Assembly (NCBI GenBank): GCA_021789755.1
Contig: JAJYJD010000003.1
Span: forward strand, 1-34,455
Reading direction: 5' to 3'
DNA length: 34,455 nucleotides
From: Bacteroidota bacterium
GTDB lineage: Bacteria; Bacteroidota; Ignavibacteria; Kryptoniales; JAKASW01
Shown here: positions 16,901 through 34,087 of the stretch, one piece after another
Layout: every line of letters begins with the position of its first letter
Position numbering within the stretch: the first letter of the stretch is position 1
Program-made: the position numbers and the translations under genes
Notes under the pieces: model-generated
Seen by the model: only the letters and a program-made list of their open reading frames with translations
Told to the model about the DNA's origin: nothing
Databases searched by the model: none

Positions 16901-17232
16901 ATGAGCGATAGTTTACTTACAAAGCCCATCTTATGTTCCGTAACTAAGGTGGGTCGGTATTCTACCATTAGTGAATACTCGCTGTTGGTCGGCCCGCTGA
17001 TCGCTTCACAGTGAAAGTACGGATCAAAACCTGTGTCTTGAAATGGAGGATAAGATTCCCAGCCGCTTACATTTCCTTCCTTGAAATCTACTTTGTAGAT
17101 TACCTTTTTAGTTATCATCGAATAGTCTCTCTGGTTAAGCTTGCTCATAGGCCCTTGAGCCGCTACCGGGCTATAAACCGGCTGAAAAAGGAAAAGCAAG
17201 AATAATGTAGCAAGCCTCATTTTATTACGCAT
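13969..17232 (-). CDS. Heparinase II/III-family polysaccharide lyase with N-terminal beta domain
   Basis: A large exported protein (about 1087 aa) expected to cleave uronic-acid glycans by beta-elimination. ATG 17232 is chosen because GGAG lies nine bases upstream and it gives a signal peptide (LATLFLLFLFQPVYSPVAA). About residues 35-220 form a beta-rich, CBM-like domain ending TYRLFLSDFHLTAREA. An alpha-toroid follows (HPRLFFRQREIDN, TNWIGNTVGGAICCALA, GEGISYQAFAFG), resembling the DUF4962/alginate-lyase fold with a candidate catalytic Tyr in ISYQ. The heparinase II/III beta-sandwich follows with NHEHYDQGSFQLNAFGRTL, matching the family HxHxDxGxF metal/catalytic segment, and GHNTVLVDEDAG. 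The usual Asn-His pair of PL15/17-type lyases is replaced by NWIGN. No T9SS tail is seen. It is the last gene of the operon; the substrate is unknown. Confidence 0.85.
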   Translation of the reverse strand: MRNKMRLATLFLLFLFQPVYSPVAAQGPMSKLNQRDYSMITKKVIYKVDFKEGNVSGWESYPPFQDTGFDPYFHCEAISGPTNSEYSLMVEYRPTLVTEHKMGFVSKLSLIADATTRASFYYKANGYGDFKGMTLILYGSDGKQYSYHTSISDDREWHKITVGLSDFNFLRVGMMPGTGIDGFSITTDIPKTNPDVTYRLFLSDFHLTAREAVQFEIREPASYYLKNLQLIVPLHHYTPGEHVDLSAKLPSGVKLSKVNVSIISPDGKTIQKDAALFFNSTDNSWTKKNVYTFSRHDTPGQWAVKIDGENRTGKRVETEFNLWLAEENLQHPRLFFRQREIDNCKEKIGTQHWQNWWDSLVQEAAKSRETSIVRSIKFGSESSSLREVPPRELGLDSLSNVNFAVLDSVYLIPTLSHYFSIMESAEKILRDNALVYALTGDTSAGEYAKEALVRIAKWKTWNHPWFRARHRETYYPMGELGMRAAFCYDMVYPLMNPRERDEVSEGLLKDCIIPAYEEYVLHDRTPSATTNWIGNTVGGAICCALAIYGDDPKLGDLEPYLSGLLKKFQMYLDNTLDTTGAWGEGISYQAFAFGNDLPTISAIRHVLGIDLASKGLLNSYKYFLYNYSDPRILDNGDSHPELSTLSSFSWLSTHSNDPSFQWLYMKSPRNNVLDFMFGSDSGVETPPTSLPKSKEFPELGAVVFRSGWSPDDVVMNFRCGPWYNHEHYDQGSFQLNAFGRTLVPEAGDVNYYADPWYQGYYIEPAGHNTVLVDEDAGSQESGDYPHFIKSANRMARITDFISTDDYSSVTGELADLYYGKLAEFQRNIIFLNRKYFVIFDKLKSSGAPHQYDLLFHFSNRKEVSLKQSNVFTFKTDKASLFARVVYPENPNLTICGAPTRFGPPLREPGYVQVSNSKKGRKENFLTVLYPVKGEGDVNVMSKNIKKINGSGCVGVSVRMDNGVDALLFKTGSANMAAEKVVTDGKIAEVSLQNQRLSHLAASEATYFGYKGNELITADAPVTFNVRRVATREKWTINSNVECRASILLESEPTSITLNGRLQQGVKEVGKSIQVVLSKGSNSLEIQF

Positions 17233-17304
17233 CGCTCTGTTCTCCGGAAGAATAGCCGAGATCTGCGGCTCACCACGGTGGTGAGTCGCAGTCTTCGGCA
17301 AAGG

Positions 17305-19146
17305 TCACTTAAGCAACATCATTTTTTTCGTCAGGACATTTGCTCCCTGCCGGAGTGTATAGAAATAGACTCCGCTAGCGTAGCTGTTCATGTTGACGTT
17401 GAACGTGTAGGTGCCGGCGGGCCTGTAACCGGAGTCGACAACTTTGACAAGTTGACCAAGAACATTGTAAACTTTCAGGCTCATGACACCTGCCCGGTTT
17501 ACACTGACTCTAATGTCGGTTGACGGATTGAAAGGATTCGGATAGTTCTGGCTTAGTTCGAACTTTGTCGGGACCTGGGATGCAGCTGATCTGACCGCGT
17601 TGACACCACCACCTTCCCATTCCTTCATTTGGCTCGGGAACCAATTAAGGTCTCCCAACGCATAGCTGTTCGTGCCAGCTGATTGGAGTGTCGCGTCCGA
17701 ATACGCTAGGTTCTCGGGTAATGGCTGAGTAGGCGGATACACAGATCCTGTCGGATCGTACCACCACAAGTATTTTCCCAGACCCTTAGTTTTGCTCAGG
17801 TATACATAGTGGTCCAGACTATCTACTTGACCCATTATGGACGAGGAGAAACCGGGATCGACGCTGATATTTCCTGTATCTTCGAAGTACGGATACCTCT
17901 TGGTGGTCGGGAAAGTGTTCACTATGCTGGTGGTATCAGAAATGATAGTTGTGTCCGTACTTACTGTAGTGTCGGCGGCAAGAGTGGTATCGGGCACAAA
18001 AGAAGTATCGGCCGCATAGAAAGTCGTGGTGTCCACGACTGTATCTGCTGACGAAGTAGTGGTGCCATTTATTATTATAGTGTCCTGCGTGATATGATGC
18101 GTCGAAATCGACATGAAGGTAGTATCATTGAACATTACCTGGGTGAAGGGGGTCATCCAGCCGGGAGGAGTTATTGAGTCGGCGACTGAGGTTGATGTGT
18201 CATTTATAGAATTCCAAAAGGCTTGCATCGCCTGTGGCCAGTAATAATCGTTGTTATCTAGCGTGATGTGTCTTTCTGCCTCCGTTATGCCGTATGTCGT
18301 TCCGATCGCGCCGAGACTACCCAGACCTATCACTGGAATGCTTCCCGAAGCATCGGTTCCATAAAAGATGTTGTTGGTAATCGTTGCCTGTGTGAGGTAC
18401 GTAATATACATGAGGTGTGCGCCGCTCAGGAAGATAGTATTGTGGTCGAAATCCAGAAAATTATTGTAGTAGACGTTTGCAAGTGCGTAGCCCTCATTAC
18501 AGAATATTGTGTTGTTTACGATATAAACGGTGTCCGTAGGAATCTTGCCTGGGGCAAACAAAACATCCCCGTAGTAGAACGAGGTGTAATCTTGTTGATT
18601 CCTGAACACGTTGTTGGTCAGCCAGTAGCTATTCCAATTTCCGTTCGACCAAAAAGCCGCTTCGGTCCAGCCATCAAATACGCAGCTGTCCGCCGTTATA
18701 TCCAAGCTGTCTCCCGTAACGAAGATTGCTTTACCCGGTCTGACTGGGGCCTGGTCCGGCGCAACGCCGAACAAGTACAGTTGTCTAAGGGTGAGACTTC
18801 CGCTTTCAAGGTTAATGAAAGTATTCGGACGGGAGTTATCTAAGAGGATGGCTGGCTCTATGACGGGCAGTGCTCCCTTGCCGGGGCCGGCCACTATAGT
18901 TAGCGGGAAGTTCACGTTCATCGTACCGGTGAAGAAATAGATCGAGTCTTTTGACAGTTCATACACTCGATTGGGATTCACTCTTGCACCGGTGGCCGTG
19001 GTATCACCCATAATGAATGTGTTGATGCTGCCCGGCGGCATGGCCGGAACCATGACAGTATCCGCTGCCTGGGAAAATGCGCTCGCCGGCCTTTCAACCA
19101 GGATCGCAATCGGCACGATCAGCAAGGTTATGAGTAATCGTTTCAT
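17305..19146 (-). CDS. T9SS-exported beta-helix-like surface protein
   Basis: A secreted protein of about 613 aa. ATG 19146, with AGGAAG upstream, gives the signal peptide LLITLLIVPIAILVERPASA; the ORF track start at 19185 is too early. The N-terminal half has repeating short strands with Asn-rich turns (DSLDITADSCVFDGW, YWLTNNVFRN, VYIVNNTIFCNE, LDFDHNTIFLSG, ATITNNIFYGT). These are typical of a right-handed parallel beta-helix as in pectate-lyase-like proteins. A low-complexity Asp/Thr-rich stretch (ADTTVSTDTTIISDTTS) follows. The C-terminus is a canonical type A sorting domain: FELSQNYPNPFNPSTDIRVS ... GVYFYTLRQGANVLTKKMM. It is therefore exported by the type IX system and likely anchored on or released from the surface. 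Catalytic residues cannot be assigned. A glycan-binding or lyase role is inferred from its place in the operon. Confidence 0.82.
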   Translation of the reverse strand: MKRLLITLLIVPIAILVERPASAFSQAADTVMVPAMPPGSINTFIMGDTTATGARVNPNRVYELSKDSIYFFTGTMNVNFPLTIVAGPGKGALPVIEPAILLDNSRPNTFINLESGSLTLRQLYLFGVAPDQAPVRPGKAIFVTGDSLDITADSCVFDGWTEAAFWSNGNWNSYWLTNNVFRNQQDYTSFYYGDVLFAPGKIPTDTVYIVNNTIFCNEGYALANVYYNNFLDFDHNTIFLSGAHLMYITYLTQATITNNIFYGTDASGSIPVIGLGSLGAIGTTYGITEAERHITLDNNDYYWPQAMQAFWNSINDTSTSVADSITPPGWMTPFTQVMFNDTTFMSISTHHITQDTIIINGTTTSSADTVVDTTTFYAADTSFVPDTTLAADTTVSTDTTIISDTTSIVNTFPTTKRYPYFEDTGNISVDPGFSSSIMGQVDSLDHYVYLSKTKGLGKYLWWYDPTGSVYPPTQPLPENLAYSDATLQSAGTNSYALGDLNWFPSQMKEWEGGGVNAVRSAASQVPTKFELSQNYPNPFNPSTDIRVSVNRAGVMSLKVYNVLGQLVKVVDSGYRPAGTYTFNVNMNSYASGVYFYTLRQGANVLTKKMMLLK

Positions 19147-19301
19147 GATGGTTCTCTTCCTTTCTGTTGTGGTTAAGAAACTCAAAGGTCACCCGCAAGA
19201 AAGCTTCTGACACAATGCTCACAGTTTAAAGGCGATGTTGCTCACTTATTCAAGCTTACCCCCGTTATCAGTTCGCGCTCGGGAATTTCAAAGCAAGTCG
19301 T

Positions 19302-20381
19302 TTATTTGCCGTGACTCAAAATGTGTCGGCTGCAAAACTTCTTCACCAATTCATAACGTCTCGTATCACGATATGGTGTACGGAACACAAGAACGGCGCC
19401 CGCTTGTCTGTAGGCTATTTTCATTGCTTCTTTCAAATAAGATGGAGTTGCCTCTCTGGACCATGACGAATGAGGAGTGAAATAGATGCAGGGTATGAGG
19501 ACTGCCTCCGGGAAAATCTTGGCGAATTCATTGATATTCCCGGGAAGGCTTGCAGAAGACATGCCATATTCTGGAGACAGACTGGCTTTGTGCTGGTATC
19601 CCCATTCCACAGCGTTAACGTATGGCATGTAAGGGCGAATCTCTTCCATGTTTTTCAGCTGGTTCTCATAAATGGTAACCCCCAGTAAGAGATTCCGGTT
19701 TTCCCTTTCTAGAATTGCGTAAATCTTTTTGACGTAGTCGGGAGTGAAATAATTCGTGTTGTAGAGAAAATCGTCGATCATCAACAGCGTGAGATTGTGA
19801 TGGGTCCTGGAAACCCGTCCGATTGCTTTCGCCCACTTTTGATAATTGAGCCTGTACGGCGGATACCGCATTCTCGAGCCATGCTCCAATCCTGGTTCTT
19901 CACTTGGCGGCACCAATACGACCCATACTTCCAAATGAATCTTCGATGCAAGGTGGCAGAATTCAGGGAGGGCATCGAGTTCCGCCGCCGAATGGCTGTC
20001 TATCAGGTAGCTGTAACAGTTGACTCCGAGATCTTTGAGCCTGTCGATCATCTCTTTGATTCTCGGTTTTCCCTGTACGTCGTACTTCATTCCTGCATAT
20101 GCTGCAACCCTTCGATGTCCGGACGGAAACAGTCTTCTCATACGCATGAGCGCGGCAACGTGCTCTTCGTTTTGTTTCGTTATTGTCTGTGAGCTGCGGT
20201 CGGGCGTTTGAAGCTTATCTATTGTCCCCCCGTTCGCATATCTCTCGATATTGACATGAATCGATTTCAGGTTTGCCGCTGAAGCTTTGATGGGACCACG
20301 GGCAAATGCGGTCATGGCATTCGAACTCGTCAGTAGACCGGTGATCATGAAGAGATATAGCAAGTAACTAATTGATTCCAT
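19302..20381 (-). CDS. Secreted TIM-barrel-like protein, putative glycoside hydrolase (short form A)
   Basis: A 359-aa protein with a hydrophobic N-terminus (YLLYLFMITGLLTSSNAMTAFA) suggesting export. No named family was recognised. The pattern of strands ending in acidic residues suggests a (beta/alpha)8 barrel: RVAAYAGMKYD, LGVNCYSYLIDSH, LEVWVVLVPP, LTLLMIDDFLYN, LLLGVTIYENQL, VNAVEWGYQHK, VLIPCIYFTPHS, AGAVLVFRTPY. The IDDF and YENQ elements on successive strands could hold acid/base residues. The same order of motifs occurs in the lipoprotein at 23381-24652 (IIIDDFFEN, VVVYEDQL, GVYFKN, GGALLFSAPW), so the two are probably distant paralogs. An AGGAA ribosome binding site precedes the ATG. 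It lies 60 bp after the TonB receptor. Function as a glycan hydrolase is inferred. Confidence 0.7.
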   Translation of the reverse strand: MESISYLLYLFMITGLLTSSNAMTAFARGPIKASAANLKSIHVNIERYANGGTIDKLQTPDRSSQTITKQNEEHVAALMRMRRLFPSGHRRVAAYAGMKYDVQGKPRIKEMIDRLKDLGVNCYSYLIDSHSAAELDALPEFCHLASKIHLEVWVVLVPPSEEPGLEHGSRMRYPPYRLNYQKWAKAIGRVSRTHHNLTLLMIDDFLYNTNYFTPDYVKKIYAILERENRNLLLGVTIYENQLKNMEEIRPYMPYVNAVEWGYQHKASLSPEYGMSSASLPGNINEFAKIFPEAVLIPCIYFTPHSSWSREATPSYLKEAMKIAYRQAGAVLVFRTPYRDTRRYELVKKFCSRHILSHGK

Positions 20382-20441: not shown

Positions 20442-23342
20442 TCAGAAGCTCGTCTCGAGTCCAATGTCGGCGGTCATGCCGTATGAATTCTCCGATTGCG
20501 GAAAACTGGATCCGCCGTTTAGATAGAGATCCTTTGCGCCGTTAATGTTGTTCATATCGAAGAAGAGCCGGAGATGATACCAGGGAAGCCCCTGTTTGGC
20601 GGCGAGGTCCCACCTGAGATAGTTTGCCCCGTACTCTCTTAACTCAGACCAGAATTCAGCTCCCTGAAAGACGTTCGACTGGAACAGCATTGAAACGCGA
20701 ATCGAGAATTCCTTGTAATCATACCCGATGGCCAGGTTGGCAATGTCATCAGGCTGGTAAATCAAACGATCTGTATAGAAGGTATCGTTTACGACCTGCT
20801 GGTATTTCGGCAGGTAAATGGTAGTCACTGTCGTGAGGGGATATTTGGCGCGCGAAAAGATATGAGTAAAATTCGCACTTAAGACTAAACCCGACAATGG
20901 ACCTGGGAGATACCAGAAGTGAGTTTCCCAATCAATTTCAGTCCCATACAGATTGACAACGTTCGGGTTGTTAATTGATGTTGATAATGGTTCCCCTTTT
21001 GTGTTGCTCGGTATCCCCGGATAATCTGCCGGATTCACTACGTAAGTGTTCACCGGAAATATCAGGTTGCGAATATGCTTGAGGAAACCGTCGACCGTCA
21101 GTAAACCGACTGTGTTGTTATAAATCGAAAGAATGGCGTCGTAGTTGGTCGAATGTGCTGGTTTAAGAGCGTAATTGTGCCAGACCACGCTCTGGTACCC
21201 GATGTTGATCCTTGGTGTGATAGCATCAAAGGACGGGTATGTAAGAGTATTCGTGTAAGCCAGGTGAATCTGCATCCATGAAAGTGGCTTGACAATCAAG
21301 TGTGCCATCGGAAGCCAAAAACCGTGCGTCTCTTCAATGGTGGTATCATGGTACTCATAAGAAAGTGGTGTCTGAGTTCCCCTTGGAGCTGTATACGAAG
21401 TTGAGAGCTGCTGGAACCTTACCCCTGGCAGGATAGTCAAGTCCTGACCGATGCTCAGCGTATACATGATGTAGGCAGCACTCTCTCGCTCAAAGCCATT
21501 ATAGTTGTTGGTGGCCGATAAGAAATCATTAGTCGCCACATCGGTCTCATAGTCGTATGATTGCGGAGGTGGTGACTGATTAATGACATTCATTACCTGG
21601 TGCATCAGGCCGATGTTCAAGGGCACCCCCATGCCATATTGACCATTCAGAAAGTTCCCATAGCTAAAGTTTGGATCCTCAAAGAGGGTAATCGGTAAGT
21701 ATATACTCCCTGAAGGAACGGAACTCTGCATCCACGGAAAGGCATTCAGGATTGCTTGAATGGTTGTATCGATTCCGTTTATTTGGAAGCGGTTAGCCTG
21801 ACTCAAGTAATTATAAGATTTTGTAGTGTATCTGTATGCCCCGCCGAATTTCAGAATGCTGGTAATATCTCTCGAAAAATTGATGTTTGACAGGAAATCG
21901 ACTTGTGCCGAAAGCTGACGGTTTCTGGACAAGCTGCTCGACTGCAGGGCGGATTGAAAATCGGTTTGTGATAGATCGTTCTTCGCAAGTGTCGGAATAA
22001 CCTGTGGACTCAAACGTTGATAGTTGGCATTGTTCAGGCCGACATCGGTTTGTTCAAAGCTGAAAGTCAAAAGGTTCGGTACTGAGGTCTGAGAATAGGA
22101 GTGAGCAAACTTTGCATCTACAGCGAACAGCGGGAATATTTCTTTGATGTCAAGGAGATTTGTGATGATGTCAAGAATACTGTTCTCGTCCGTCGCACTG
22201 TAGCTGTGAGTATTATTCACCAGATCGTAGTTCTCGTTTCTTATTTGTTCGTTTGTGTTGCCGGAACTCAGGAAGTTCATGAGCTCCACCTTAAGTGTGG
22301 GACGCTTGTAATCCATGACCACCTCAGCGCCGTAACGTTGCCTGTATCTAGGTATATCGGTCAGGCTTAAGTCCTGCATGTAGACCGGGTTTGGTTTCCC
22401 TAGTTGGGGTGCGTTCAAGTTGTAGGTTGCACCGAGTTCATTTGCGGTTAGATTGCGTCCCTCAATATTTGCCTCAGCAAATACTCCGAACCGATTGTTG
22501 AAGAAGCGGGACTCCGCGGTGCCTACCACCTTGTAGTTGGAATGCGTGCCGATCAAGGCATTGTACCCGCCCTGCGCCAGCAAGGAGGTCAGGATGCCTT
22601 TTTTTGATTCCCGAGCTTCCCTGAGTTCGAGATTGACAATTCCACCAACGGCTGCCGCGTCCATGTCTGGCGTAATCGCTTTGATCACCTCTATCCCCCC
22701 GAGCATGTTCGAGGAAATATCGCTCAAGTCGACTGCGCGACTCGATGAAACGTTTGGCGGAACCTCAATTCCATCGATCGTAATCTCGTTGTACTGCGGT
22801 GCCAGTCCTCGAATAACAACTTGCGCCCCTTCTCCGCCTTCCCTCACGAGAGAAATCCCTGGGAGCCGGCCAATCGATTCTGCCGCATTTGCATCGGGAA
22901 GTTCACGTATTCTTGCCGCTGAGACGACGTTCATTATCTGCTCGGATGAAAGCTGCTGGTTTATAGCAGAATTCTGACCGGCAGCCTGCGCTGTCACGAC
23001 CACTTCTTTCCCCTTCACTCCGACGGCATGCAACCCGAAGTCTCGCCTTGTTGTGTTATTTGAAGAGACTTCGATACTAAACTCCTGATTGCCATAACCC
23101 ACATAGGAGGCGCGCAATTTGTACATGCCAGCAGGCACATCGTTCACCACGAAGTGGCCATCATCGTTTGACACCGCACCCATGCTCGTTCCGACGAGAA
23201 GGACATTTGCACCTATGAGAGGTCTGCGTGTTTGAGCGTCCCTGACGTACCCTTCAACTATGCCGCTTGATGCAAAAGCCAAAGATGGAACTGAACTCAC
23301 CGCTAACACCGCCAGGATCAGGGGAAGAATTTTTCTATGCAT
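20442..23342 (-). CDS. TonB-dependent outer membrane receptor with regulatory-like N-domain
   Basis: A 966-aa outer-membrane receptor that would import a ligand, here probably oligosaccharide, with energy from TonB/ExbBD. After the signal peptide (ILPLILAVLAVSSVPSLAFA) comes a carboxypeptidase-regulatory-like beta-sandwich (GIVEGYVRDAQTRRPLIGAN ... YKLRASYVGY). A plug domain follows (INQQLSSEQIMNVVSAARIR, ESIGRLPGISLVREGGEGAQ, VVIRGLAPQYNEITIDGIEV). The remainder is a long barrel ending in an aromatic residue (GLETSF). The plug wording (IRELPDANAAESIGRLPGI) resembles the TonB-Xanth-Caul type rather than SusC, and no SusD-like gene is next to it. A GAGGG ribosome binding site precedes the ATG. 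It follows the lipoprotein gene by 38 bp within the operon. Confidence 0.93.
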   Translation of the reverse strand: MHRKILPLILAVLAVSSVPSLAFASSGIVEGYVRDAQTRRPLIGANVLLVGTSMGAVSNDDGHFVVNDVPAGMYKLRASYVGYGNQEFSIEVSSNNTTRRDFGLHAVGVKGKEVVVTAQAAGQNSAINQQLSSEQIMNVVSAARIRELPDANAAESIGRLPGISLVREGGEGAQVVIRGLAPQYNEITIDGIEVPPNVSSSRAVDLSDISSNMLGGIEVIKAITPDMDAAAVGGIVNLELREARESKKGILTSLLAQGGYNALIGTHSNYKVVGTAESRFFNNRFGVFAEANIEGRNLTANELGATYNLNAPQLGKPNPVYMQDLSLTDIPRYRQRYGAEVVMDYKRPTLKVELMNFLSSGNTNEQIRNENYDLVNNTHSYSATDENSILDIITNLLDIKEIFPLFAVDAKFAHSYSQTSVPNLLTFSFEQTDVGLNNANYQRLSPQVIPTLAKNDLSQTDFQSALQSSSLSRNRQLSAQVDFLSNINFSRDITSILKFGGAYRYTTKSYNYLSQANRFQINGIDTTIQAILNAFPWMQSSVPSGSIYLPITLFEDPNFSYGNFLNGQYGMGVPLNIGLMHQVMNVINQSPPPQSYDYETDVATNDFLSATNNYNGFERESAAYIMYTLSIGQDLTILPGVRFQQLSTSYTAPRGTQTPLSYEYHDTTIEETHGFWLPMAHLIVKPLSWMQIHLAYTNTLTYPSFDAITPRINIGYQSVVWHNYALKPAHSTNYDAILSIYNNTVGLLTVDGFLKHIRNLIFPVNTYVVNPADYPGIPSNTKGEPLSTSINNPNVVNLYGTEIDWETHFWYLPGPLSGLVLSANFTHIFSRAKYPLTTVTTIYLPKYQQVVNDTFYTDRLIYQPDDIANLAIGYDYKEFSIRVSMLFQSNVFQGAEFWSELREYGANYLRWDLAAKQGLPWYHLRLFFDMNNINGAKDLYLNGGSSFPQSENSYGMTADIGLETSF

Positions 23343-23380: not shown

Positions 23381-24652
23381 CTATGGCTTTAATTGTATGT
23401 TAGGCAATACGATTTGCATTCCTGGCTGCAATTCGATGTCAAATGTCTCCGGCTGGTATGGCGCCTTAGCAACCTCAACTTCATAAGACGAGCCATTACT
23501 TTCCCCCGCCCAGCCGCCGAAGCTGTATTCACCTTCGTTCGAAGTGAACTTTCTAGAAACGAGCTGTGTGTTCTTTGCTGTCAGTCTTTGTACGGAAACA
23601 AGCGCATTGGCGACCGGGTTGCCGGTACGAGCGTCGATTACCGTTCCCGTTGCCTCACCAAGATTCGGATAGTAGAGGCTGTCCAGAAATGGAGGAATTG
23701 CGAGTGAGTCCCAGCGCTGCTGAGTTATGTACTGTTGGGTCAGCCATGGCGCCGAGAAGAGAAGCGCTCCACCAATCTCTCCCTGATCATACTTGCTTAT
23801 GGAGTTCTGAATCATATACTTGATGCTGACCGGCGTCATCTGTTCGAGAGAGTTCTTGAAATACACTCCCACAATTATCCCCTTGCCTGGATAATTTTGC
23901 TTCACAGTACTTATGTACTGATCAAGATTAGTGTAGTTCTCGTTCTGATGGTGCATCCATAAATTGACTCCGTCGATCAAGTTAACGACCGACTGGCTGG
24001 AAATGCCGAGTTGATCCTCATACACGACCACATAGAGTCTCAGATTCGGAGTAGTGGCCTGAGATGTATCCTCGACATTCCCGTTTCCATCAAGGGTTTT
24101 TCCCTCGAGAGCCTCCCTGATCTCCTGCAACTGAGAAACAGTTATTTTGCCCCCTTGAAAATTCTCGAAGAAATCATCGATAATAATACCGGAAATCTGC
24201 GGATACTCCTTCGACAACTCCGAGAACCTATGAGCAGCCTGGATCATTCCGGGCGATTGCGCAAAAGGCTGAAGAAGAATAGTATCCCCGGGCTGGTTGA
24301 CGACCCCACCTTCCGTGGGCGGCCGCAATACTCCGTAGACTTTGTTTGTGTTCCAAATCGTGCAGTTGTCAACCAGATTTGTCTGAAATGTGTATCCATA
24401 GTATTGAGCTTGAGATATAACACCATTTAATCCGAAGTTGAATGCGGTTTGAATCAATTCTCCTGAAGGCCAGCCCCAGCCGCCGTAGATCGTGCCTGTC
24501 GAATTATGGTACAAACCGATGAACCCTGGAATTTTTTCCGTAACCGGAGTCGAACTTGTCGGACCGACTATCCCGTTTGAATAAGGCGATTTTGAACAGC
24601 CCTCGAGCATTACAAAAGAAAAAAAGGAAAGAACGGCTACCGATTTCAACAT
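23381..24652 (-). CDS. Lipoprotein with TIM-barrel-like domain and C-terminal beta domain (short form B)
   Basis: About 423 aa from ATG 24652, which gives a compact lipoprotein signal (MLKSVAVLSFFSFVMLEGC) with the lipidated Cys 19 residues in. An alternative ATG at 24712, with GGGAG upstream, would give a 39-residue leader; the track start at 24748 is less likely. The barrel part parallels the 359-aa protein: GFIGLYHNSTG, FGLNGVISQAQYYG, ISGIIIDDFFENF, LYVVVYEDQL, VNLWMHHQN, IIVGVYFKNSLEQMTP, GGALLFSAPW. The C-terminal about 90 residues (GTVIDARTGNPVANALVSVQ ... FTSNEGEYSFGGW) form a carboxypeptidase-regulatory-like/prealbumin beta-sandwich like the one at the front of the adjacent TonB receptor. 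It may act as a surface glycan-binding or cleaving partner of the receptor, in place of SusD. This is inferred. Confidence 0.72.
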   Translation of the reverse strand: MLKSVAVLSFFSFVMLEGCSKSPYSNGIVGPTSSTPVTEKIPGFIGLYHNSTGTIYGGWGWPSGELIQTAFNFGLNGVISQAQYYGYTFQTNLVDNCTIWNTNKVYGVLRPPTEGGVVNQPGDTILLQPFAQSPGMIQAAHRFSELSKEYPQISGIIIDDFFENFQGGKITVSQLQEIREALEGKTLDGNGNVEDTSQATTPNLRLYVVVYEDQLGISSQSVVNLIDGVNLWMHHQNENYTNLDQYISTVKQNYPGKGIIVGVYFKNSLEQMTPVSIKYMIQNSISKYDQGEIGGALLFSAPWLTQQYITQQRWDSLAIPPFLDSLYYPNLGEATGTVIDARTGNPVANALVSVQRLTAKNTQLVSRKFTSNEGEYSFGGWAGESNGSSYEVEVAKAPYQPETFDIELQPGMQIVLPNIQLKP

Positions 24653-24719: not shown

Positions 24720-26921
24720 TCATCTCCCTGTATGATCAGACATGTCAATCAACCTGTAGCTGCGAGGCATGACTTGTATTTTGAGTGCTGCGTTATTCTT
24801 CGACTTTGCTATTTCTTTTCCGGCAACAAGATCCTTCCAATTCTGAGTCTCACCTTTATAATAAGGCGTCAACGGCATAAGAGTGATTTCGAGCTTTGAA
24901 TTGTTGTGATTCACCACCGCTGTCACAAAACCCGATCTGGTTTTAGAAACCGCCACGTCGCAATTCTGATTTGTTCCCACGATATCAACATAGCGCTGTA
25001 CCCCGATGTAGTTAAAGACATCGCGCACCAGATATGGGAATTTGCGGGCGGCAGTCTGCGCATCGGTCAGAACAGAGACAACCTTCCCCTTACCATAAGT
25101 GTTCAAGGTTATTGCAGGAGACTCGTCTTCAAACGTCGCAATGACATTTGCGCCCTCAGTTCTCCACACTGGAAGCGTCACTCTCCCAAGCTCCCATTTC
25201 TTGCCAGTAACAGTTCTCTCTCGAAAATCAAATCGGTCGATAATGGCGATATGTGTCCGACTTTTCCCGGTTTTTTCAATCCCAAAGAGAATAGTGCGGT
25301 TGTAAGTCGTGCCCATAGGTATTCTGGGACCGAATGCGACAACTGTCCCTCCTCTCTCAAGAAAATGCTTCATCAACTCGCTGTCGGTTTCATTTAGACC
25401 CGATAGACTCGGGAACACCAACACTTCTTTTGCTTTTAACATCTGCGTCAAGGCACGTGAATTCGCGCGGACCGGGTAGTACGGTGGGTAAGATTCTTCA
25501 TGAAATGGCGCCCATGGAAGAATGTCCACCGGGATTCCCATTGTCCTAAATGCATCAAGGGCACTGTAATAATCGCGTTCCCATCTATATTCCTGGAAGT
25601 CTGTCCAGGGAATATAGACTGCCAGTTGGTTCCGGTGTGCGGAAGCATTACCGATCAAATCAAATGCCTTCATCCCGTCAAAAACTGCGTCGCGGCTCCG
25701 ATCAAACTCCTGTCGGTACTGGGGATATCGCCTGAGGGTATTGTAAATAACCCCGCTGTAATTGAACATTATAATGCCATCGTTATGCGGAACCGTCGCG
25801 GCGCTCATGAATTGCTGATAGATGTTGTTGTAACTTGCGATGTACAAATGCTTCAGGGCGTTCTCCAGGTAACCGAAAAGTTCAACATGAGTCAAGACGA
25901 TTTTGCTTTGAAGTTCAGATGCACCCGACGCAATTGAGCCGAAGTCTTTGACCCTCCTGAAAGGAAATTTGATGCGGTTATCAGGTCTGTAACTAGCCAT
26001 TACCATTCCCTGGTATATTATTATGTTGAGACTCCTGATAGCGCTGAGGTAACCGGCAAGCAATGGATTATCCGTATACGGAGCACAAGCAGTGAGCAAT
26101 CCGGGATTTACTTCCTTGACATAGTCGCAGAACTCTCTCACGTATGTTGCATAGTATATTCCACTCCCTTCCTGATACGAGTAGAACCCAACAAGAGAAG
26201 GATGGCTTCCATACAGGCTGTAGAGTTCTTTGATGATCTCGTGCGTGCTCTTCATTCGTTGAGGAGGCGGGATCACTCTGGTCATGTCCCAGCTGACCGA
26301 TAGCACGACCGAAATGCCGTTTTCATCTGCGCATTTCAATAGACTGCTTAGGTAACTCTGGTCGATTGGAGAGGAACTATCCATGTTGCAGATTTTCGAT
26401 CTGTAGTAAACCCTGCGGGGGGTGATTATCGTATGAGCTATAAGAAAGTTCGCCCCGAAGTTTTTTAACTCGCCGATGTATTTGTCCATATCGGATTTGA
26501 GACCCTTCGGATCGAAGACTCCGATCATACAGAAATCCCCGATGATCTTCTTGAACAGGAACACTGCTTTTCCTATAGCCGCCGGTCTGGCCCTATCGCC
26601 TACCCAGGCCTGAATTGCATAAAGTCCTTGTGGACCATTTCTTCTGATAATGAAGTGCGAATCATAAACGGAAGTTTTCACTTTTTTCAGGCAGAGTGGA
26701 ATTGCACCTTCGTCGGGGATAAGGATCACAGCGTTGAGCGGGTTCTCATCCGCAGATTCAACCACGATGTTCACAGTGTCTCCGATAGTCACTTCGGATG
26801 GGGTGACCGAGATCTTGATAACTTCGCCCGATGCTTTCATCGCCGGAAGAGCAGCGATTAGAATTGCAGAAATAGCGATGAGCCTGAAAAGGAAGCGGGT
26901 TGGCGTACTTTCAGATATCAT
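24720..26921 (-). CDS. Secreted DUF4434-like TIM-barrel / trimerisation-fold protein
   Basis: About 733 aa. ATG 26921 overlaps the stop of the epimerase gene as ATGA, a sign of translational coupling, and gives a signal peptide (RLIAISAILIAALPAMKA). A small beta domain comes first (IKISVTPSEVTIGDTVNIVV). A TIM barrel follows with GVFDPKGLKSDMDKYIGELK and FGANFLIAHTIITPRRVYY, as in DUF4434 proteins. It continues with GISVVLSVSWDMT, HPSLVGFYSYQEGSGI, NIIIYQGM and GIIMFNYSGVIY. The EGSG element could hold a catalytic Glu. Next is a Rossmann-like domain resembling the GH42 trimerisation/GATase fold (NQLAVYIPWTD, KEVLVFPSLSGLNETDSELM, GGTVVAFGPR), then a beta-sandwich tail. A glycoside hydrolase role is inferred. 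The second large protein of the operon has the same layout. Confidence 0.72.
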   Translation of the reverse strand: MISESTPTRFLFRLIAISAILIAALPAMKASGEVIKISVTPSEVTIGDTVNIVVESADENPLNAVILIPDEGAIPLCLKKVKTSVYDSHFIIRRNGPQGLYAIQAWVGDRARPAAIGKAVFLFKKIIGDFCMIGVFDPKGLKSDMDKYIGELKNFGANFLIAHTIITPRRVYYRSKICNMDSSSPIDQSYLSSLLKCADENGISVVLSVSWDMTRVIPPPQRMKSTHEIIKELYSLYGSHPSLVGFYSYQEGSGIYYATYVREFCDYVKEVNPGLLTACAPYTDNPLLAGYLSAIRSLNIIIYQGMVMASYRPDNRIKFPFRRVKDFGSIASGASELQSKIVLTHVELFGYLENALKHLYIASYNNIYQQFMSAATVPHNDGIIMFNYSGVIYNTLRRYPQYRQEFDRSRDAVFDGMKAFDLIGNASAHRNQLAVYIPWTDFQEYRWERDYYSALDAFRTMGIPVDILPWAPFHEESYPPYYPVRANSRALTQMLKAKEVLVFPSLSGLNETDSELMKHFLERGGTVVAFGPRIPMGTTYNRTILFGIEKTGKSRTHIAIIDRFDFRERTVTGKKWELGRVTLPVWRTEGANVIATFEDESPAITLNTYGKGKVVSVLTDAQTAARKFPYLVRDVFNYIGVQRYVDIVGTNQNCDVAVSKTRSGFVTAVVNHNNSKLEITLMPLTPYYKGETQNWKDLVAGKEIAKSKNNAALKIQVMPRSYRLIDMSDHTGR

Positions 26922-28297
26922 TTCTGATTCACTGCTTCCGCTGCTCCTGGCCACGCTGGTCGCCCGCCATTGTTTTCCAATTTCTCTAATGCCAGGTATG
27001 TCAGCATGAGGTGGCGGGGCAAATGATAGTTCTCTATGCGATCGTAATGTGGCGTGAAAGTGACCTTCCTATCCGCTGCAGTGATCCATAAATGGTATCC
27101 GAATGGCTTGAGCCAATATTTGGCAACCATATACTCATACGTTTTCGCAAACCATTCTTTTGCCCACTCGTCCCCGGACTGCTCAATGAGAACCATCATG
27201 CCGTTCAATGCCTCCTCCTGCGCCCAGAGGACCTTTGGAGTCCTTTTGATTTCCCACAGGTCCAGATCCACGTTATTCAAGCTCCTGAGAACTCCCGAGT
27301 AAACCTGGTCCCATGCAACTTCCACATGGCGTTTGAATCTCTCCGCCGCGGTCCGGAACAATTTCAAATCCTTGGATCCGACCGCCTCTTCCATAATCGG
27401 TCGAAAGGTCTCGATAGAATGGCCTGTGTAGACAAACTCGGACAGATAATTGTCGGGACGCGAATAGTCGTGGTTGAGAAGCTCATTGTTTAGTCTGAAC
27501 TCGGGGTTGAAGTGTTTGCTTAGGACGGCATCAATGCACTTCGATCTTATCTCCTCCAGGTCTGGATCACTCCGGTGCTCAAGCATCCCATTGATAGTGG
27601 TGAGCATTACCATTGCAACACCCTGGATTCTGGCTCCTGGAAACGGGATCACTTTGGGGCCGGAATAGTCCGCCACAATTCGTGGATAATAGTCGGGGCG
27701 ATTATAGATCTTCCAGCATTTTAGGATGATCTCTTTCGCGGTGTTCCAGTATTTTTGTTCGCCTGTAGCGAAAGAATACTCGCTCAAACCCTCCGCAACG
27801 AAAACACTTCCATAAATTCTCTTTGAAGGTGGCGTAAGTGGTTTGCCTTCGCGAGTGATAACGGAAGGCCAGAGACTGTCCCCGGTGGGCTCGGTCTTCA
27901 TTATCAGCTTCAACGAGTTGGTCGCGACATCGAGGTATTTCTCGTCGTTTCCGAAATGCCTGTAGAGGAACGAGTAGACCCAGATGCCCCTTCCTTCGAA
28001 CCAGGTGCGCTTCTTTGTGTTGAGCCTCGTTCCGTCCCTGTCGTCGTTACACATGAAACCGCCGTACTTATGGTCGATCACGTACTTATCCATGAAGGGA
28101 AGAAAGTCTTCAAAAAGGTAGTAGTGATAATCATCACGGAGTTTCTTTAGAGACAGATCGCCGATTTTTAGCTTTGTGGTTCCGGAATCCATTCTCCGCC
28201 GGTCTACGGTGACTCTCTTCAACAAACTTTCGCTGCCAGAGTATTTGGCGGCCAGAATACTTCCGATTGAAGCAGCAACAAACTTGCGCCTGTCCAT
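26918..28297 (-). CDS. AGE-family sugar epimerase/isomerase, probably exported
   Basis: A 459-aa alpha6/alpha6-barrel protein of the N-acylglucosamine 2-epimerase (AGE) group, which includes cellobiose 2-epimerase and mannose isomerases. Visible family elements are GGFMCNDDRDG, RTWFEGRGIWVYSFLYRHFG, SVFVAEGLSEYSFATGEQKY, FVYTGHSIETFRPI (the GHxxE active-site segment), LWAQEEALNGMMVL and FGYHLWITAADR. The C-terminal HYDRIENYHLPRHLM matches the catalytic-His helix. The N-terminus MDRRKFVAASIGSILAAKYS resembles a weak Tat-type leader (RRKF), so it may act in the periplasm. GGAG precedes the ATG. The stop overlaps the next gene's start by four bases. Epimerisation of released sugars is the likely role; the exact substrate is unknown. 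Confidence 0.82.
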   Translation of the reverse strand: MDRRKFVAASIGSILAAKYSGSESLLKRVTVDRRRMDSGTTKLKIGDLSLKKLRDDYHYYLFEDFLPFMDKYVIDHKYGGFMCNDDRDGTRLNTKKRTWFEGRGIWVYSFLYRHFGNDEKYLDVATNSLKLIMKTEPTGDSLWPSVITREGKPLTPPSKRIYGSVFVAEGLSEYSFATGEQKYWNTAKEIILKCWKIYNRPDYYPRIVADYSGPKVIPFPGARIQGVAMVMLTTINGMLEHRSDPDLEEIRSKCIDAVLSKHFNPEFRLNNELLNHDYSRPDNYLSEFVYTGHSIETFRPIMEEAVGSKDLKLFRTAAERFKRHVEVAWDQVYSGVLRSLNNVDLDLWEIKRTPKVLWAQEEALNGMMVLIEQSGDEWAKEWFAKTYEYMVAKYWLKPFGYHLWITAADRKVTFTPHYDRIENYHLPRHLMLTYLALEKLENNGGRPAWPGAAEAVNQK

Positions 28298-28332
28298 CTT
28301 TTATCGCTCCATTTCAAAAGCGTGTGTTGAGA

Positions 28333-28363
28333 GGAACACCGCACGGCTTGCTGCCGGTGTTCC
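28333..28363. repeat. Intergenic hairpin GGAACACCG-N13-CGGTGTTCC
   Basis: Perfect nine-base arms around 13 bases, in the 101-bp gap between the 958-aa protein gene and the epimerase gene. There is no T-run after it in the minus-strand transcript, so it is not an intrinsic terminator. It may be an mRNA processing or stabilising element that lets the two halves of the operon be expressed at different levels, or a protein-binding site. Confidence 0.55.
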
Positions 28364-28398
28364 AACCCGGCATAACCTAAGACGATTAGAGTGCAGCT

Positions 28399-31263
28399 TT
28401 ACTTTGTGCTTCGCAGCGAGTCCGTCGGCGAAAAGGCGCGAGAGGGCACCTCTCTGACATCAATCTTCGCTAAAGAGATTTGCGGAATACAGAATTCCGC
28501 AAGCGCATCTACATTACCTGTGCCGTCAGCGTTGACAAATTCGCCACCGTGCAAGACACAATCGAGCGTGTCGCAGGATTGAGATACCGGTATTTCGGAA
28601 ATCGATTTGAAGTACGATCCGTTCCAGACTTGTATTTTGCCGTGGTAGTCTGATTTGTAAACCATTCTTATTTCATAATTAGCATGAGTGTTCACACCGT
28701 TTATCCAGAAGCGGGGTCCGCCTGCGAGAGTTGAATATTTTCCTGTTCGAAATGTTATCCCGTTATCCGACTGCGGAGCGGACCACTGACCATTGTAGTA
28801 GAATGAAACACCCGGATCGTGGTCGTACTGATTATTATCGATATAGGCAATTCCGCTATATCGAAGTTTGCCTGTTTCTCCGGCAGCCACCCCAATCCAT
28901 TGATATCCGATTTTTCCTCTAGAAGGCATCGGGGTCGGAGCGACTTGGCCTTGCATGATGATCCTTGGCTTCCCGTTGACGGGAATGAACATTTCGCGTT
29001 GCGTCAGGCCTAAAGTCGTGAAGTGAATAAAGTAAGTATCGTGTTCGACGTTTTTCGGCACAGTCAGATAAAACCAGAACGTGTGCTTTTCGCCCGGTAA
29101 CAGTTTATAAGGTTCTCGCACGGAGGTTGTCATGTGACTCCATTGCTCAGGCAACGTCATAGTCAGAGTGTCGCTAATTGTGGCATCCAAAGCATTGAAC
29201 AATGTGACTGAAACTCTTTGTCTGCTACCAACTAGTACATTTCGCGATGATTCGTCGGGGTGAAGAAGCGGAAAAGTGTTGTTGGACATTACCAAGGCAC
29301 CGTAATTCTTGATCCGTGGCAGACGAAGAATGATGTTACCACCTCTAACTACGGGCTTTATGGCACAGAGTCTGTTGTTGTCAAAATAGACTGCAAACCT
29401 CCTCTTCATACTCGAGGGAAGTTCCAACTCCACGTGTCGCGCACTACTGCCCTTCTTGCTTCCAAGGATTAAGAACAAAGAGTGCGAATATCGTCCTTTC
29501 GTCTGATACTGTTCGAATGTATAGCTGTGCGGTAAATTCCGGATCTTCACAAGCATGTCCATGTGTTCTCTAGCAAGAAGAGGTAAGATCTCTGCAAGGA
29601 ATTGAAGATCACCGGGAATGATGTAGAGAATTCCCTTTCCCAAGTGGCGCAGCAATACGGCTGGTTTTCCATCCGACCATCTCGCCAGTACTAAATCTCT
29701 CGGTTCAGCATTCAATTCGAACCCGTTGGCTAATATCTCCTTCTCTCTTGTAAAGGCTGACATCCGAGACAAAAAATGTAATGTATCCTCGACGTAGTGA
29801 GTGTAATCGCATCGCAACAATTTCTGATAATCAGGCGGGATTTGATCTTCCTCGTTTCCAACAGTGTACTTTGACAGCTTGAAATCGAAATCATCATTCG
29901 GATTAGGAATGATGTTCGTCTTCGGGTCAAGCACAGAAATCAGCGTACCACCATCTTTAAGGAACCTGGTAATCGAAGATATTTGTTTTTCTGACAGTCC
30001 GACCGGCGAAGGTACTATCCAGATCCTACTGTGGACGTTTCCAAGATTAGCCGCAAATGCTTGTGGAACGTGGGCTATTGCGAGAGGTGTCCAAGCCATG
30101 TTGACAAAAGCTGTCCCGCCCAATCCCGTTTCCCTGGGAATGACTGTAGTTACCGCAGCTACCAACTTCGAACCTGCATAATACGGGACATACCTCTGGA
30201 CACTCAGCACACCTTTGCACCATGCAGCCCAACGCCAAAATGCATTTCTGTGTGTCAGAATATCATAGCCATTGAAGAGATCAAAGTAATTGAAAAAGTG
30301 AATTCCACAAGTTGTTGCCGTCAGCAGGACCCCCTGTGACACTCGATAGACTTGATCTTTCGGTATGGCACGCTCTCCGTATCCATTCATGTAATGGGTA
30401 TGGACTATTGTTTTTACGCGGTCCGACAGACCCTGAACGAAATCGGTTAGCCCGCGAAAACCCTGCATTTCCCGATAATTGGACAAAAAGTAGCTGAACT
30501 CGGAAAAATTCCCGATATAGAACTGTACGTTTTCGATATTTACTCTACCGGAGTGAATATGATTCAGGATCGTTCTGACCACTTCAGCAAACGGTCCGTT
30601 TGGAAAATCCATTACTGTCATATCGGGGTTAATCCTTAATGCAGTCTGGGCTAACTCCGAAAACTCATCGGCATTGAGATTCGGCGATCTGGATTCCACC
30701 GGTGGTACAAAGCCTCTGAATGCTGGATATTTCTTAAACCGTTCTACCATGTCGGTAGTGATGTCGTTTAGATAATCGAAGTATCTCCTATTGGACAATC
30801 CGTCTGGGACCAAAGCTAATCCGAGATATCCAGACATATGATGGGTTTCACATTCATCGAGAAAGTCCTTTACTGGATTGCGTCCGAGCCAAGGCTTCAC
30901 CTGAGGTTTTAGTTTCGGGTTGTCGTTCGGGTAGACCGATCCATTGTTCCTGTATACGTATGCGTAGGTGAGCATATTGATGCCGACTTGTTCTAATCTC
31001 GTAAACAGTCTGTCCCTCATCGCACTGGTTGAAATATCCCAAGCCGGGCGAGAACGGGGCCCATCCTTGGGTGCAGATCCCCAGTAAAACGACCCGATAT
31101 AATAAGGTGGAACGGGTAACGGTGAATTAACAAGCATCTTGTCAATATGATTATCACCGGATGAAGGAGGAGTTGATGACGCCGCCGGTGAAGATTGGCG
31201 AGCAGAACATTTGGGAGCAGCAAAGAGGGATAACCCCACAATTAATGAAGCGAGCGCCTTCAT
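28399..31263 (-). CDS. Large secreted TIM-barrel protein with GATase-like and beta domains
   Basis: About 954 aa. Two starts are possible: TTG at 31275, which would overlap the RraA stop by four bases, and ATG at 31263 (MKALASLIVGLSLFAAPKCS); both give a signal peptide. The barrel part includes PPYYIGSFYWGSAPKDGPR, VGINMLTYAYVYRNNGS, SGYLGLALVPDG, FRGFVPPVESRSPN (candidate catalytic Glu), MTVMDFPNGP, VKTIVHTHYMNG and TCGIHFFNYFDLFNGY. A GATase/trimerisation-like domain follows (SRIWIVPSPVGLSEKQISSI, DGGTLISVLDP, GKGILYIIPGDLQFL), and then Ig-like beta domains (VSVTLFNALDATISDTLTMT). Near the C-terminus is a beta-sandwich resembling a sugar-binding module (GGPRFWINGVNTHANYEIRM). The layout parallels the 733-aa DUF4434-like protein. 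Glycan hydrolysis is inferred from fold and context. Confidence 0.7.
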   Translation of the reverse strand: MKALASLIVGLSLFAAPKCSARQSSPAASSTPPSSGDNHIDKMLVNSPLPVPPYYIGSFYWGSAPKDGPRSRPAWDISTSAMRDRLFTRLEQVGINMLTYAYVYRNNGSVYPNDNPKLKPQVKPWLGRNPVKDFLDECETHHMSGYLGLALVPDGLSNRRYFDYLNDITTDMVERFKKYPAFRGFVPPVESRSPNLNADEFSELAQTALRINPDMTVMDFPNGPFAEVVRTILNHIHSGRVNIENVQFYIGNFSEFSYFLSNYREMQGFRGLTDFVQGLSDRVKTIVHTHYMNGYGERAIPKDQVYRVSQGVLLTATTCGIHFFNYFDLFNGYDILTHRNAFWRWAAWCKGVLSVQRYVPYYAGSKLVAAVTTVIPRETGLGGTAFVNMAWTPLAIAHVPQAFAANLGNVHSRIWIVPSPVGLSEKQISSITRFLKDGGTLISVLDPKTNIIPNPNDDFDFKLSKYTVGNEEDQIPPDYQKLLRCDYTHYVEDTLHFLSRMSAFTREKEILANGFELNAEPRDLVLARWSDGKPAVLLRHLGKGILYIIPGDLQFLAEILPLLAREHMDMLVKIRNLPHSYTFEQYQTKGRYSHSLFLILGSKKGSSARHVELELPSSMKRRFAVYFDNNRLCAIKPVVRGGNIILRLPRIKNYGALVMSNNTFPLLHPDESSRNVLVGSRQRVSVTLFNALDATISDTLTMTLPEQWSHMTTSVREPYKLLPGEKHTFWFYLTVPKNVEHDTYFIHFTTLGLTQREMFIPVNGKPRIIMQGQVAPTPMPSRGKIGYQWIGVAAGETGKLRYSGIAYIDNNQYDHDPGVSFYYNGQWSAPQSDNGITFRTGKYSTLAGGPRFWINGVNTHANYEIRMVYKSDYHGKIQVWNGSYFKSISEIPVSQSCDTLDCVLHGGEFVNADGTGNVDALAEFCIPQISLAKIDVREVPSRAFSPTDSLRSTK

Positions 31264-31271
31264 CTTAAATT

Positions 31272-31940
31272 TCAAAGGACCTCGTATTTTCTCCAGACTT
31301 CAGCCATGGTTCGACCCGCTGCCAATTCCTTTCTTACAATATTCTCAGTATTGATTCTCTCGACCACTTTTTCCACCACGTCTTTCTCAAGCTCCCTGGG
31401 AATGACCACTGTTCCGTCGAGATCCGCAAAGATCAGATCACCCGGAGAAATACGAACGCCACCGATAATGATTGGAATATTGTAATTGGTGACTCTTGCT
31501 CTCCCGGTGGTGTCTATCGGTGAAGGTCCCCACGCGAAAGTAGGAAACTTCATTCCTATTAATTTCCTGACATCCCGACTATAACCGTTGACGATCGCGC
31601 CACGACATTTCCGAGCAAGGAGAGCGGTAGCTGTCAGTTCACCCATGATCCCGACATCAAGATTGTCGCTTCCAGTCGTTACTAAGAGTGAGCCCGATCC
31701 GAGGGAATCTATACATTTGATGACGGTATCATAAGGTTCTTTCTCATTATCATCCTTCTCATTCAGCAAAGTCACAGCTCTTCCGGCGGCAACAAATGTG
31801 TTGTCGAGCGGACGAATCCCGGAATGAGGTGAAACGACCCGAAAGCGTTGCCCTATTTCGTCAAGGATATCGGAAAACACACCCGCATAGGCGTTCGCTT
31901 CGAGATAAGAAAAGAGTTCAGAGTCAGATTCAAAGTCCAT
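31272..31940 (-). CDS. RraA-family protein (HMG/CHA-type aldolase or sugar-acid enzyme)
   Basis: A 222-aa cytosolic protein of the RraA/LigK fold, a family holding the RNase E inhibitor RraA and metal-dependent 4-hydroxy-4-methyl-2-oxoglutarate-type aldolases. Family motifs are FSDILDEIGQR, GELTATALLARKCRGAIVNG with SRDVRKL directly after, FPTFAWGPSPIDTTGRARVT, GGVRISPGDLIFADLDGTVV and IP. The conserved Arg-Asp pair of the aldolases is present (YSRDV). An AAGGTGA ribosome binding site precedes the ATG. As first gene of a glycan operon it is more likely to cleave or process a sugar acid than regulate RNase E. This is inference. It is transcribed from a promoter about 300 bp upstream. Confidence 0.85.
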   Translation of the reverse strand: MDFESDSELFSYLEANAYAGVFSDILDEIGQRFRVVSPHSGIRPLDNTFVAAGRAVTLLNEKDDNEKEPYDTVIKCIDSLGSGSLLVTTGSDNLDVGIMGELTATALLARKCRGAIVNGYSRDVRKLIGMKFPTFAWGPSPIDTTGRARVTNYNIPIIIGGVRISPGDLIFADLDGTVVIPRELEKDVVEKVVERINTENIVRKELAAGRTMAEVWRKYEVL

Positions 31941-33070: not shown

Positions 33071-34087
33071 CTAAGGCACCCTCTCCGGTTTACCAGAGGC
33101 CAACGAGCGATGAATCGCATCAAGTATTGCGGTGACACGCCTTCCGTCCTTTGCTGTCACAAACGTTTCTCGGTCGTCGGTTATTGCATCAATAAAACTG
33201 TACATGCAGGAAGGAAGGGCACCTTGCCATTTGTCGAATATCTTGTAATTCAACAGCGTCCTGGGATATGTGTACGCGTCCTTATCCGCCATTTCAATCG
33301 CTTCCGCTTTCCTGTCAGAGAAGATATGCCCCTCTGTCCCCACAATTTCCATATAAGAGTCAGGCATATATGGACTTTTGTTTGAGTAAATCCATGCAGA
33401 TTCAAAAGTTGCAAAGAATCCATTCTTGAACTTCACTTGTGCCTGAATCGCATCATAAGTGTCGACGCCCCGTTTCTTCAGAACTTCCCTCGCGCCGCTA
33501 GCATACACTTCGTCGCCCTCGCTATCTACCCACCAGCTAACAAGGTCGATGTCGTGCGAAGAAAGGAACCACGCAGAAGTACTGTGCGCGGCCCACGGTA
33601 GCCACTCAGTGGGGACTAATATTGGATCGCTCTTCTTAGCATATCCCATCAGACACTTGCCAATTCTCCCGGCCTTTATGTCGCTGTGGATCTTGTGGTA
33701 CACGGAGAGCCATCGGTGGTTGAACGAGACCTGGAACTTCTTTCCCGTTTCTGCCACCAACTTGACGATCTCATCTGCTTCTTGAATATCTGTGGTCATG
33801 GGTTTCTCCACGAGGACGTGCCTACCGGCTCTCAGAGAGTCCACCACCGGATCACGATGAGCCCAATCGGGCGTGTTTACATGTACAGCATCTAAGTCCC
33901 CGTGTTCAAGCATTTCTCTGTGGTCGTTATAGTATTTAGGAATTCCCAATTCCTTTGCAACCGCAGCCGCCCGCTCGGAATTTTTATCGCAAACCGCCGT
34001 GACTTCAACCCCGGGATAACGCTGCCACACCATGACTGCGCTTTTTCCCATTATGCCCGTTCCGACAACTCCTATCTTGATCGTCAT
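33071..34087 (-). CDS. Gfo/Idh/MocA-family NAD(P)-dependent oxidoreductase
   Basis: A 338-aa cytosolic sugar or inositol dehydrogenase, normal family length. The Rossmann motif is IGVVGTGIMGKSAVM. VHVNTPDWAHRD and the hallmark VEKPMTTDIQEADEIV (EKP with catalytic Lys) follow. The C-terminal substrate domain has QVSFNHRWLSVYHKIHSDIK and SSHDIDLVSWW, the region that supplies active-site Asp/His residues. The ATG at 34087 lies 40 bp after the alcohol dehydrogenase stop. With that gene and the VOC gene it forms an operon for redox conversion of sugars or polyols. The exact substrate cannot be read from sequence. Confidence 0.9.
   Translation of the reverse strand: MTIKIGVVGTGIMGKSAVMVWQRYPGVEVTAVCDKNSERAAAVAKELGIPKYYNDHREMLEHGDLDAVHVNTPDWAHRDPVVDSLRAGRHVLVEKPMTTDIQEADEIVKLVAETGKKFQVSFNHRWLSVYHKIHSDIKAGRIGKCLMGYAKKSDPILVPTEWLPWAAHSTSAWFLSSHDIDLVSWWVDSEGDEVYASGAREVLKKRGVDTYDAIQAQVKFKNGFFATFESAWIYSNKSPYMPDSYMEIVGTEGHIFSDRKAEAIEMADKDAYTYPRTLLNYKIFDKWQGALPSCMYSFIDAITDDRETFVTAKDGRRVTAILDAIHRSLASGKPERVP

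What the first reader, a model, noticed from the sequence alone, without database searches (positions are those of the whole stretch)
24720..31263. Two large secreted proteins share a barrel + GATase-like + beta-sandwich layout
Both the 733-aa and 954-aa proteins have a DUF4434-like TIM barrel, a Rossmann/trimerisation-type domain with a KEVLVFPS or RIWIVPSP strand and a GGT(V/L) turn, then beta domains. This is the layout of GH42-like enzymes, but the active-site context differs (EGSG and PPVESRS). They flank the epimerase gene. They may be paired exo-acting hydrolases of an unassigned family.
Basis: partly seen in the sequence, partly recalled or inferred. Interest (0 to 1): 0.58.

Follow-up and report, generated by a model that had tools for sequence, protein, structure and literature searches.

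The report
GH42-layout putative glycosidase pair, sugar locus
Two neighbouring secreted proteins of an uncultured Bacteroidota lineage look like distant cousins of beta-galactosidase-type sugar-cleaving enzymes; one keeps the usual pair of catalytic glutamates while the other seems to have lost one, so this is a lineage-specific variation on a known enzyme design rather than a new kind of system.

Summary
The 733-aa protein (24720-26921, minus) is a GH42-layout protein: Ig-like N-terminal domain, DUF4434-type barrel, GH42M trimerisation domain and C-terminal beta-sandwich. Its model's best PDB matches are GH42 and GH164. Two glutamates sit directly after barrel strands 4 and 7 (E262 in QEGSG, E358 in THVELF), and both are shared with canonical DUF4434 proteins. 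This is the clan GH-A signature, so a retaining exo-glycosidase is the best reading (about 0.7). The substrate is unknown.

The 954-aa protein (28399-31263, minus) shares the trimerisation domain beyond doubt. Its barrel is only weakly supported: barrel-only profile comparison is not above shuffles, and its structure model failed. It keeps the strand-4 Glu (E194) but has no Glu at the strand-7 position (THYMNG). 'Paired hydrolases' is therefore supported for one partner only.

Both lie in a conserved polysaccharide-utilisation-like cluster: TonB receptor, heparinase-like lyase, T9SS protein, RraA-type aldolase, epimerase, dehydrogenases. The 733 family was found in 7 of 13 genomes of the genus plus one other genus of the class; the 954 family in four genomes, always beside a 733 gene, but seven 733 loci lack it.

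The parts
24720..26921 (-). 733-aa secreted protein: Ig-like N-terminal domain, DUF4434-type barrel, GH42M trimerisation domain, C-terminal beta-sandwich; putative retaining clan GH-A glycosidase
   Evidence: Pfam, 11-member alignment, AF2 model pLDDT 69.7, fold search, DUF4434 comparison
26169..26171 (-). codon of E262 (QEGSG), directly after barrel strand 4; inferred acid/base
25881..25883 (-). codon of E358 (THVELF), directly after barrel strand 7; inferred nucleophile
28399..31263 (-). 954-aa secreted protein: probable barrel, GH42M-like trimerisation domain, several C-terminal beta domains; catalytic status uncertain
30694..30696 (-). codon of E194 (PPVESRS), aligned with E262 of the 733-aa protein
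30388..30390 (-). codon of M296 (THYMNG), at or next to the position of E358 in the 733-aa protein: no Glu
26918..28297 (-). N-acylglucosamine 2-epimerase-like gene between the two, with a Tat-like RRKF N-terminus; its stop overlaps the ATG of the 733-aa gene
23381..24652 (-). 423-aa lipoprotein with C-terminal CarboxypepD_reg domain, co-conserved
20442..23342 (-). TonB-dependent receptor
19302..20381 (-). 359-aa protein without known family, co-conserved
17305..19185 (-). beta-helix protein with T9SS sorting tail
13969..17301 (-). heparinase II/III-like polysaccharide lyase
31272..31940 (-). RraA-like aldolase
33071..34087 (-). Gfo/Idh/MocA oxidoreductase

Best explanation
The 733-aa protein is a secreted, probably trimeric, retaining exo-glycosidase of clan GH-A type, built like GH42 and GH164 enzymes but with a DUF4434-type barrel: E262 acts as acid/base and E358 as nucleophile. 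The 954-aa protein descends from a similar architecture, keeps the strand-4 glutamate and the trimerisation domain, has lost the canonical strand-7 nucleophile, and is either a glycosidase with a changed mechanism or a non-catalytic glycan-binding partner. Both work with a heparinase-like lyase, a TonB receptor and a sugar-acid or deoxy-sugar catabolic gene set in the breakdown of a heteropolysaccharide. Shown by computation: domain layout of the 733-aa protein, positions of its two glutamates in the predicted barrel, trimerisation domain in both, gene-cluster conservation. Inferred: catalysis, exo-mode, retention, trimer formation, and everything about the substrate.
For: Glyco_hydro_42M above cut-off and DUF4434 at its cut-off in the 733-aa protein; DUF4434 profile match E = 1.3e-10; the two glutamates are among the columns identical between 7 canonical DUF4434 proteins and 11 members of the 733 family; in the model they follow strands 4 (242-247) and 7 (340-345); the fold's best PDB matches are GH42 enzymes (E down to 2e-22) and GH164; in GH164 the corresponding layout has the acid/base on strand 4 and the nucleophile on strand 7, clan GH-A (PMC7105311). 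Joint profile hits GH42 and GH164 structures in the trimerisation domain. Conserved cluster in relatives with lyase, TonB receptor, RraA aldolase and others; other 733-type genes lie next to GH92, GH31, GHL10, GH3, SASA and NAGPA genes, and one cluster copy also carries GH125.
Against: TM-scores of the fold matches are only about 0.45 over the whole protein. E262 and E358 are two of many invariant columns within the 733 family itself. The canonical Asn-Glu of clan GH-A is Gln-Glu here. The 954-aa barrel is not significant on its own, and its model failed (pLDDT 39.4).
Confidence: 0.7

Rival explanations
1. Both proteins are active glycosidases acting as a pair on the same glycan; the 954-aa protein uses another acidic residue (for example E301, E259 or D223) as second catalytic residue.
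For: Colinear barrel alignment with a retained strand-4 Glu; E301, E259 and D223 lie near the ends of the aligned strands; the 954-aa gene is always beside a 733-aa gene.
Against: No Glu at the strand-7 position; only three sequences cover the barrel, so conservation cannot pick out a substitute; seven 733-type loci lack the 954-type gene.
Confidence: 0.3
2. The 954-aa protein is a non-catalytic relative that binds or presents the glycan, perhaps through its extra C-terminal beta domains.
For: Loss of the strand-7 Glu; about 270 additional residues rich in predicted strands (low-confidence model).
Against: The strand-4 Glu is kept; strong conservation of the whole protein among the four copies (67-89 % identity).
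Confidence: 0.4
3. Neither is an enzyme; the barrels are scaffolds or binding proteins.
For: DUF4434 has no characterised member in the paper library searched.
Against: The Glu pair of the 733-aa protein is kept across the distant DUF4434 family at the catalytic strand ends; both lie in a carbohydrate-degradation cluster.
Confidence: 0.12
4. The 733-aa protein is simply a divergent member of an existing CAZy family such as GH42 or GH164.
For: Same layout and best fold matches; trimerisation-domain sequence match to GH42.
Against: No barrel sequence match to GH42, GH164 or any other solved GH at a significant E-value; the barrel matches DUF4434 instead.
Confidence: 0.15

Closest known systems
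GH42 beta-galactosidases (e.g. PDB 5e9a, 4oif, 3tts)
   Same: Barrel, trimerisation domain, C-terminal beta domain; Glu after strands 4 and 7 in the 733-aa protein; sequence match in the trimerisation domain.
   Different: Barrel sequence is DUF4434-type, QE instead of NE, additional N-terminal Ig-like domain; the 954-aa protein lacks the strand-7 Glu.
GH164 beta-mannosidase Bs164 (PDB 6t5o; PMC7105311)
   Same: Same three-domain layout and strand-4/strand-7 catalytic scheme.
   Different: No barrel sequence similarity detected; match limited to the trimerisation domain.
DUF4434 (PF14488) proteins, about 470 aa in the same genus
   Same: Barrel with both glutamates conserved: SEExDG / DMEVF against QEGSG / HVELF; E = 1.3e-10.
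   Different: Canonical members are shorter (462-530 aa open frames), so they cannot hold the full 733-aa layout; the 954-aa protein matches DUF4434 only at E = 0.18.

Membership tests
DUF4434 (PF14488), 733-aa protein | Profile match at the curated cut-off of 30 bits | tested here: met
   Borderline: 29.0 bits in hmmscan (just below), 31.6 bits in the six-frame search (over); its close homologues score 32-43 bits
DUF4434 (PF14488), 954-aa protein | Profile match at the curated cut-off of 30 bits | tested here: not met
   11.8 bits, E = 0.18; hhalign against canonical members E = 0.04
GH42M trimerisation domain (PF08532), 733-aa protein | Profile match at the curated cut-off of 25.8 bits | tested here: met
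   31.2 bits, residues 504-632
GH42M trimerisation domain (PF08532), 954-aa protein | Profile match at the curated cut-off | tested here: not met
   No Pfam hit; homology shown indirectly by hhalign with the 733-aa domain and weakly with GH42-like proteins (E = 0.011)
GH42 | GH42 catalytic barrel sequence | tested here: not met
   No Glyco_hydro_42 hit in Pfam; PDB profile hits to GH42 restricted to the trimerisation domain
GH164 | GH164 catalytic barrel sequence | tested here: not met
   PDB 6t5o matched only in the trimerisation domain, E = 0.012; fold similarity only
Clan GH-A, 733-aa protein | Catalytic Glu at the ends of strands 4 and 7 | tested here: met
   E262 and E358 directly follow strands 4 and 7 in the model; loop confidence is low and geometry was not measured
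Clan GH-A, 954-aa protein | Catalytic Glu at the ends of strands 4 and 7 | tested here: not met
   Strand-4 Glu present by alignment, strand-7 Glu absent; model too poor to place them independently
Clan GH-A | Retaining hydrolysis through a covalent intermediate | not testable with these tools
   Needs biochemistry
Any CAZy family | dbCAN/CAZy profile match | not testable with these tools
   No CAZy library available; Pfam, NCBIfam and PDB give no characterised family for the barrels

The most novel reading that the evidence does not exclude
The 954-aa protein is a clan GH-A-derived enzyme that has moved its second catalytic residue or works without the strand-7 nucleophile, forming a two-enzyme system with the 733-aa glycosidase on a glycan that no known family degrades.
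Probability: 0.15. Interest if true: 0.55.

Novelty: new member of a known kind. Interest (0 to 1): 0.33.

Why it matters
It gives DUF4434, a barrel family for which no paper was found in the library searched, a testable catalytic hypothesis with two named residues, and links that barrel to the GH42/GH164 trimerisation layout. The neighbouring 954-aa protein offers a natural comparison in which the same layout appears to have lost the nucleophile.

Tried and rejected
Structure prediction of the 954-aa protein with a joint alignment failed (pLDDT 39.4) and was not used for fold search. The idea that the 423-aa lipoprotein downstream is a third relative was tested and dropped (hhalign E 0.3-0.6). 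The barrel-only comparison of the two proteins was not above shuffled controls, so their relatedness rests on the trimerisation domain plus colinearity. A single PDB sequence search with each protein gave nothing relevant. NCBIfam gave no family for either protein. No paper mentions DUF4434 or PF14488 in the library searched. In the loci L040 and L043 I first picked the wrong reading frame (a GH3-like neighbour); corrected. Five further weak DUF4434 matches in other genera were read: four look like ordinary GH42-type proteins and one frame picked is unrelated.

Full report
What is there. The window is a contig (C93) of an uncultured Bacteroidota genome whose relatives in named collections are Bacteroidetes and Candidatus Kryptoniota MAGs. 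On the minus strand lies a run of genes: Gfo/Idh/MocA oxidoreductase, glyoxalase-like protein, RraA-like aldolase, the 954-aa protein, an N-acylglucosamine 2-epimerase-like gene, the 733-aa protein, a lipoprotein with a CarboxypepD_reg domain, a TonB-dependent receptor, a 359-aa protein, a beta-helix protein with a T9SS tail, and a heparinase II/III-like lyase. The stop of the epimerase gene overlaps the ATG of the 733-aa gene (coordinates, start context).

The cluster is real and conserved. L030 and L036 keep the cluster through to the lyase in the same order; L031 has it from the 954-aa gene (cut near the contig end) onward, with a GH125 gene inserted before the lyase; L039 keeps epimerase and 733-type gene side by side with GH3 and SASA esterase genes nearby. 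Relatives add, upstream, an IclR regulator, a second Gfo/Idh/MocA gene, a sodium:solute symporter, an amidohydrolase, a class-III aminotransferase, a 2-hydroxyacid dehydrogenase, an M20 peptidase and a zinc alcohol dehydrogenase. Other 733-type genes sit in loci with GH92, GH31, GHL10, NAGPA and DUF5009 genes. This is a polysaccharide-degradation setting (inference from gene content).

The 733-aa protein. Pfam gives Glyco_hydro_42M (31.2 bits, above cut-off) and DUF4434 (29.0 bits, cut-off 30; 31.6 in the six-frame search). Profile comparison with seven canonical DUF4434 proteins of the genus gives E = 1.3e-10. An AlphaFold2 model from 11 window and named-locus sequences has mean pLDDT 69.7, pTM 0.65, with a well-predicted N-terminal beta domain, an alternating barrel, a Rossmann-like domain and a C-terminal beta-sandwich. 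Foldseek against the PDB ranks GH42 enzymes first, then GH164 beta-mannosidase and a beta-1,2-glucosyltransferase of Ignavibacterium album. In the model, E262 (model residue 250) follows strand 4 and E358 (model residue 346) follows strand 7; both columns are identical between DUF4434 proteins and the 733 family in a multiple alignment (the local profile alignment covers the strand-4 Glu but stops short of strand 7). Strand 4 acid/base and strand 7 nucleophile is the clan GH-A scheme, stated for GH164 in PMC7105311. The weak point is that both loops have pLDDT below 50 and the coordinates could not be inspected.

The 954-aa protein. Pfam gives only a sub-threshold DUF4434 match (E = 0.18). Profile comparison of whole proteins, 733 against 954, scores 41.0; 200 column-shuffled controls reach at most 29.0 and the reversed profile 24.8. 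Split by domain, the trimerisation domain scores 40.0 (control maximum 23.6) but the barrel alone 20.0 (control maximum 25.4). So common descent of the trimerisation domain is well supported, that of the barrel only by colinearity, the weak DUF4434 hit, and helix-strand alternation in the better part of an otherwise failed model (pLDDT 39.4). In the aligned barrel E194 matches E262, while the place of E358 holds THYMNG without a Glu. Three sequences cover this region, too few to name a substitute.

Distribution. Full-length 733-type genes were found in 7 of the 13 genomes of the genus examined, counting the window's own and one (G009) with a second copy, and in one genome of another genus of the class; 954-type genes only in four genomes of the genus. 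A pattern scan of 84,980 species genomes gave ten loci, all Bacteroidetes/Kryptoniota MAGs; that scan reaches only relatives sharing two short conserved peptides. The 954-type gene was always beside a 733-type gene, but seven 733-type loci have none in the sequence held.

Reading. The best-supported account is one probable retaining exo-glycosidase plus one degenerate or altered relative in a heteropolysaccharide locus. The substrate is not determined; the neighbouring lyase and remnants of a KDG pathway point to a uronic-acid-containing glycan, as a guess.

Noticed in passing
window 12081-13161 (-): A KDG kinase / KDPG-aldolase-fusion-like gene is broken into at least four pieces in different frames with stops between them; either a decayed gene or assembly errors.
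   Followed up: partly
window 13498-13680 (-): Remnant matching KduD (2-dehydro-3-deoxy-D-gluconate 5-dehydrogenase), next to the broken kinase.
   Followed up: partly
window 26918-28297 (-): The N-acylglucosamine 2-epimerase-like protein starts with a Tat-like RRKF motif, so it may be exported, which would be unusual for this family.
   Followed up: no
window 23381-24652 (-): The 423-aa lipoprotein (LEGC lipobox) has a conserved IIIDDF motif and no Pfam domain besides the C-terminal CarboxypepD_reg; two copies in L039.
   Followed up: partly
window 19302-20381 (-): 359-aa protein between TonB receptor and T9SS protein without any Pfam or NCBIfam family, conserved in three relatives.
   Followed up: no
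L031 13655-15100 (+): GH125 alpha-mannosidase gene inserted between the T9SS protein and the lyase in this copy of the cluster.
   Followed up: no
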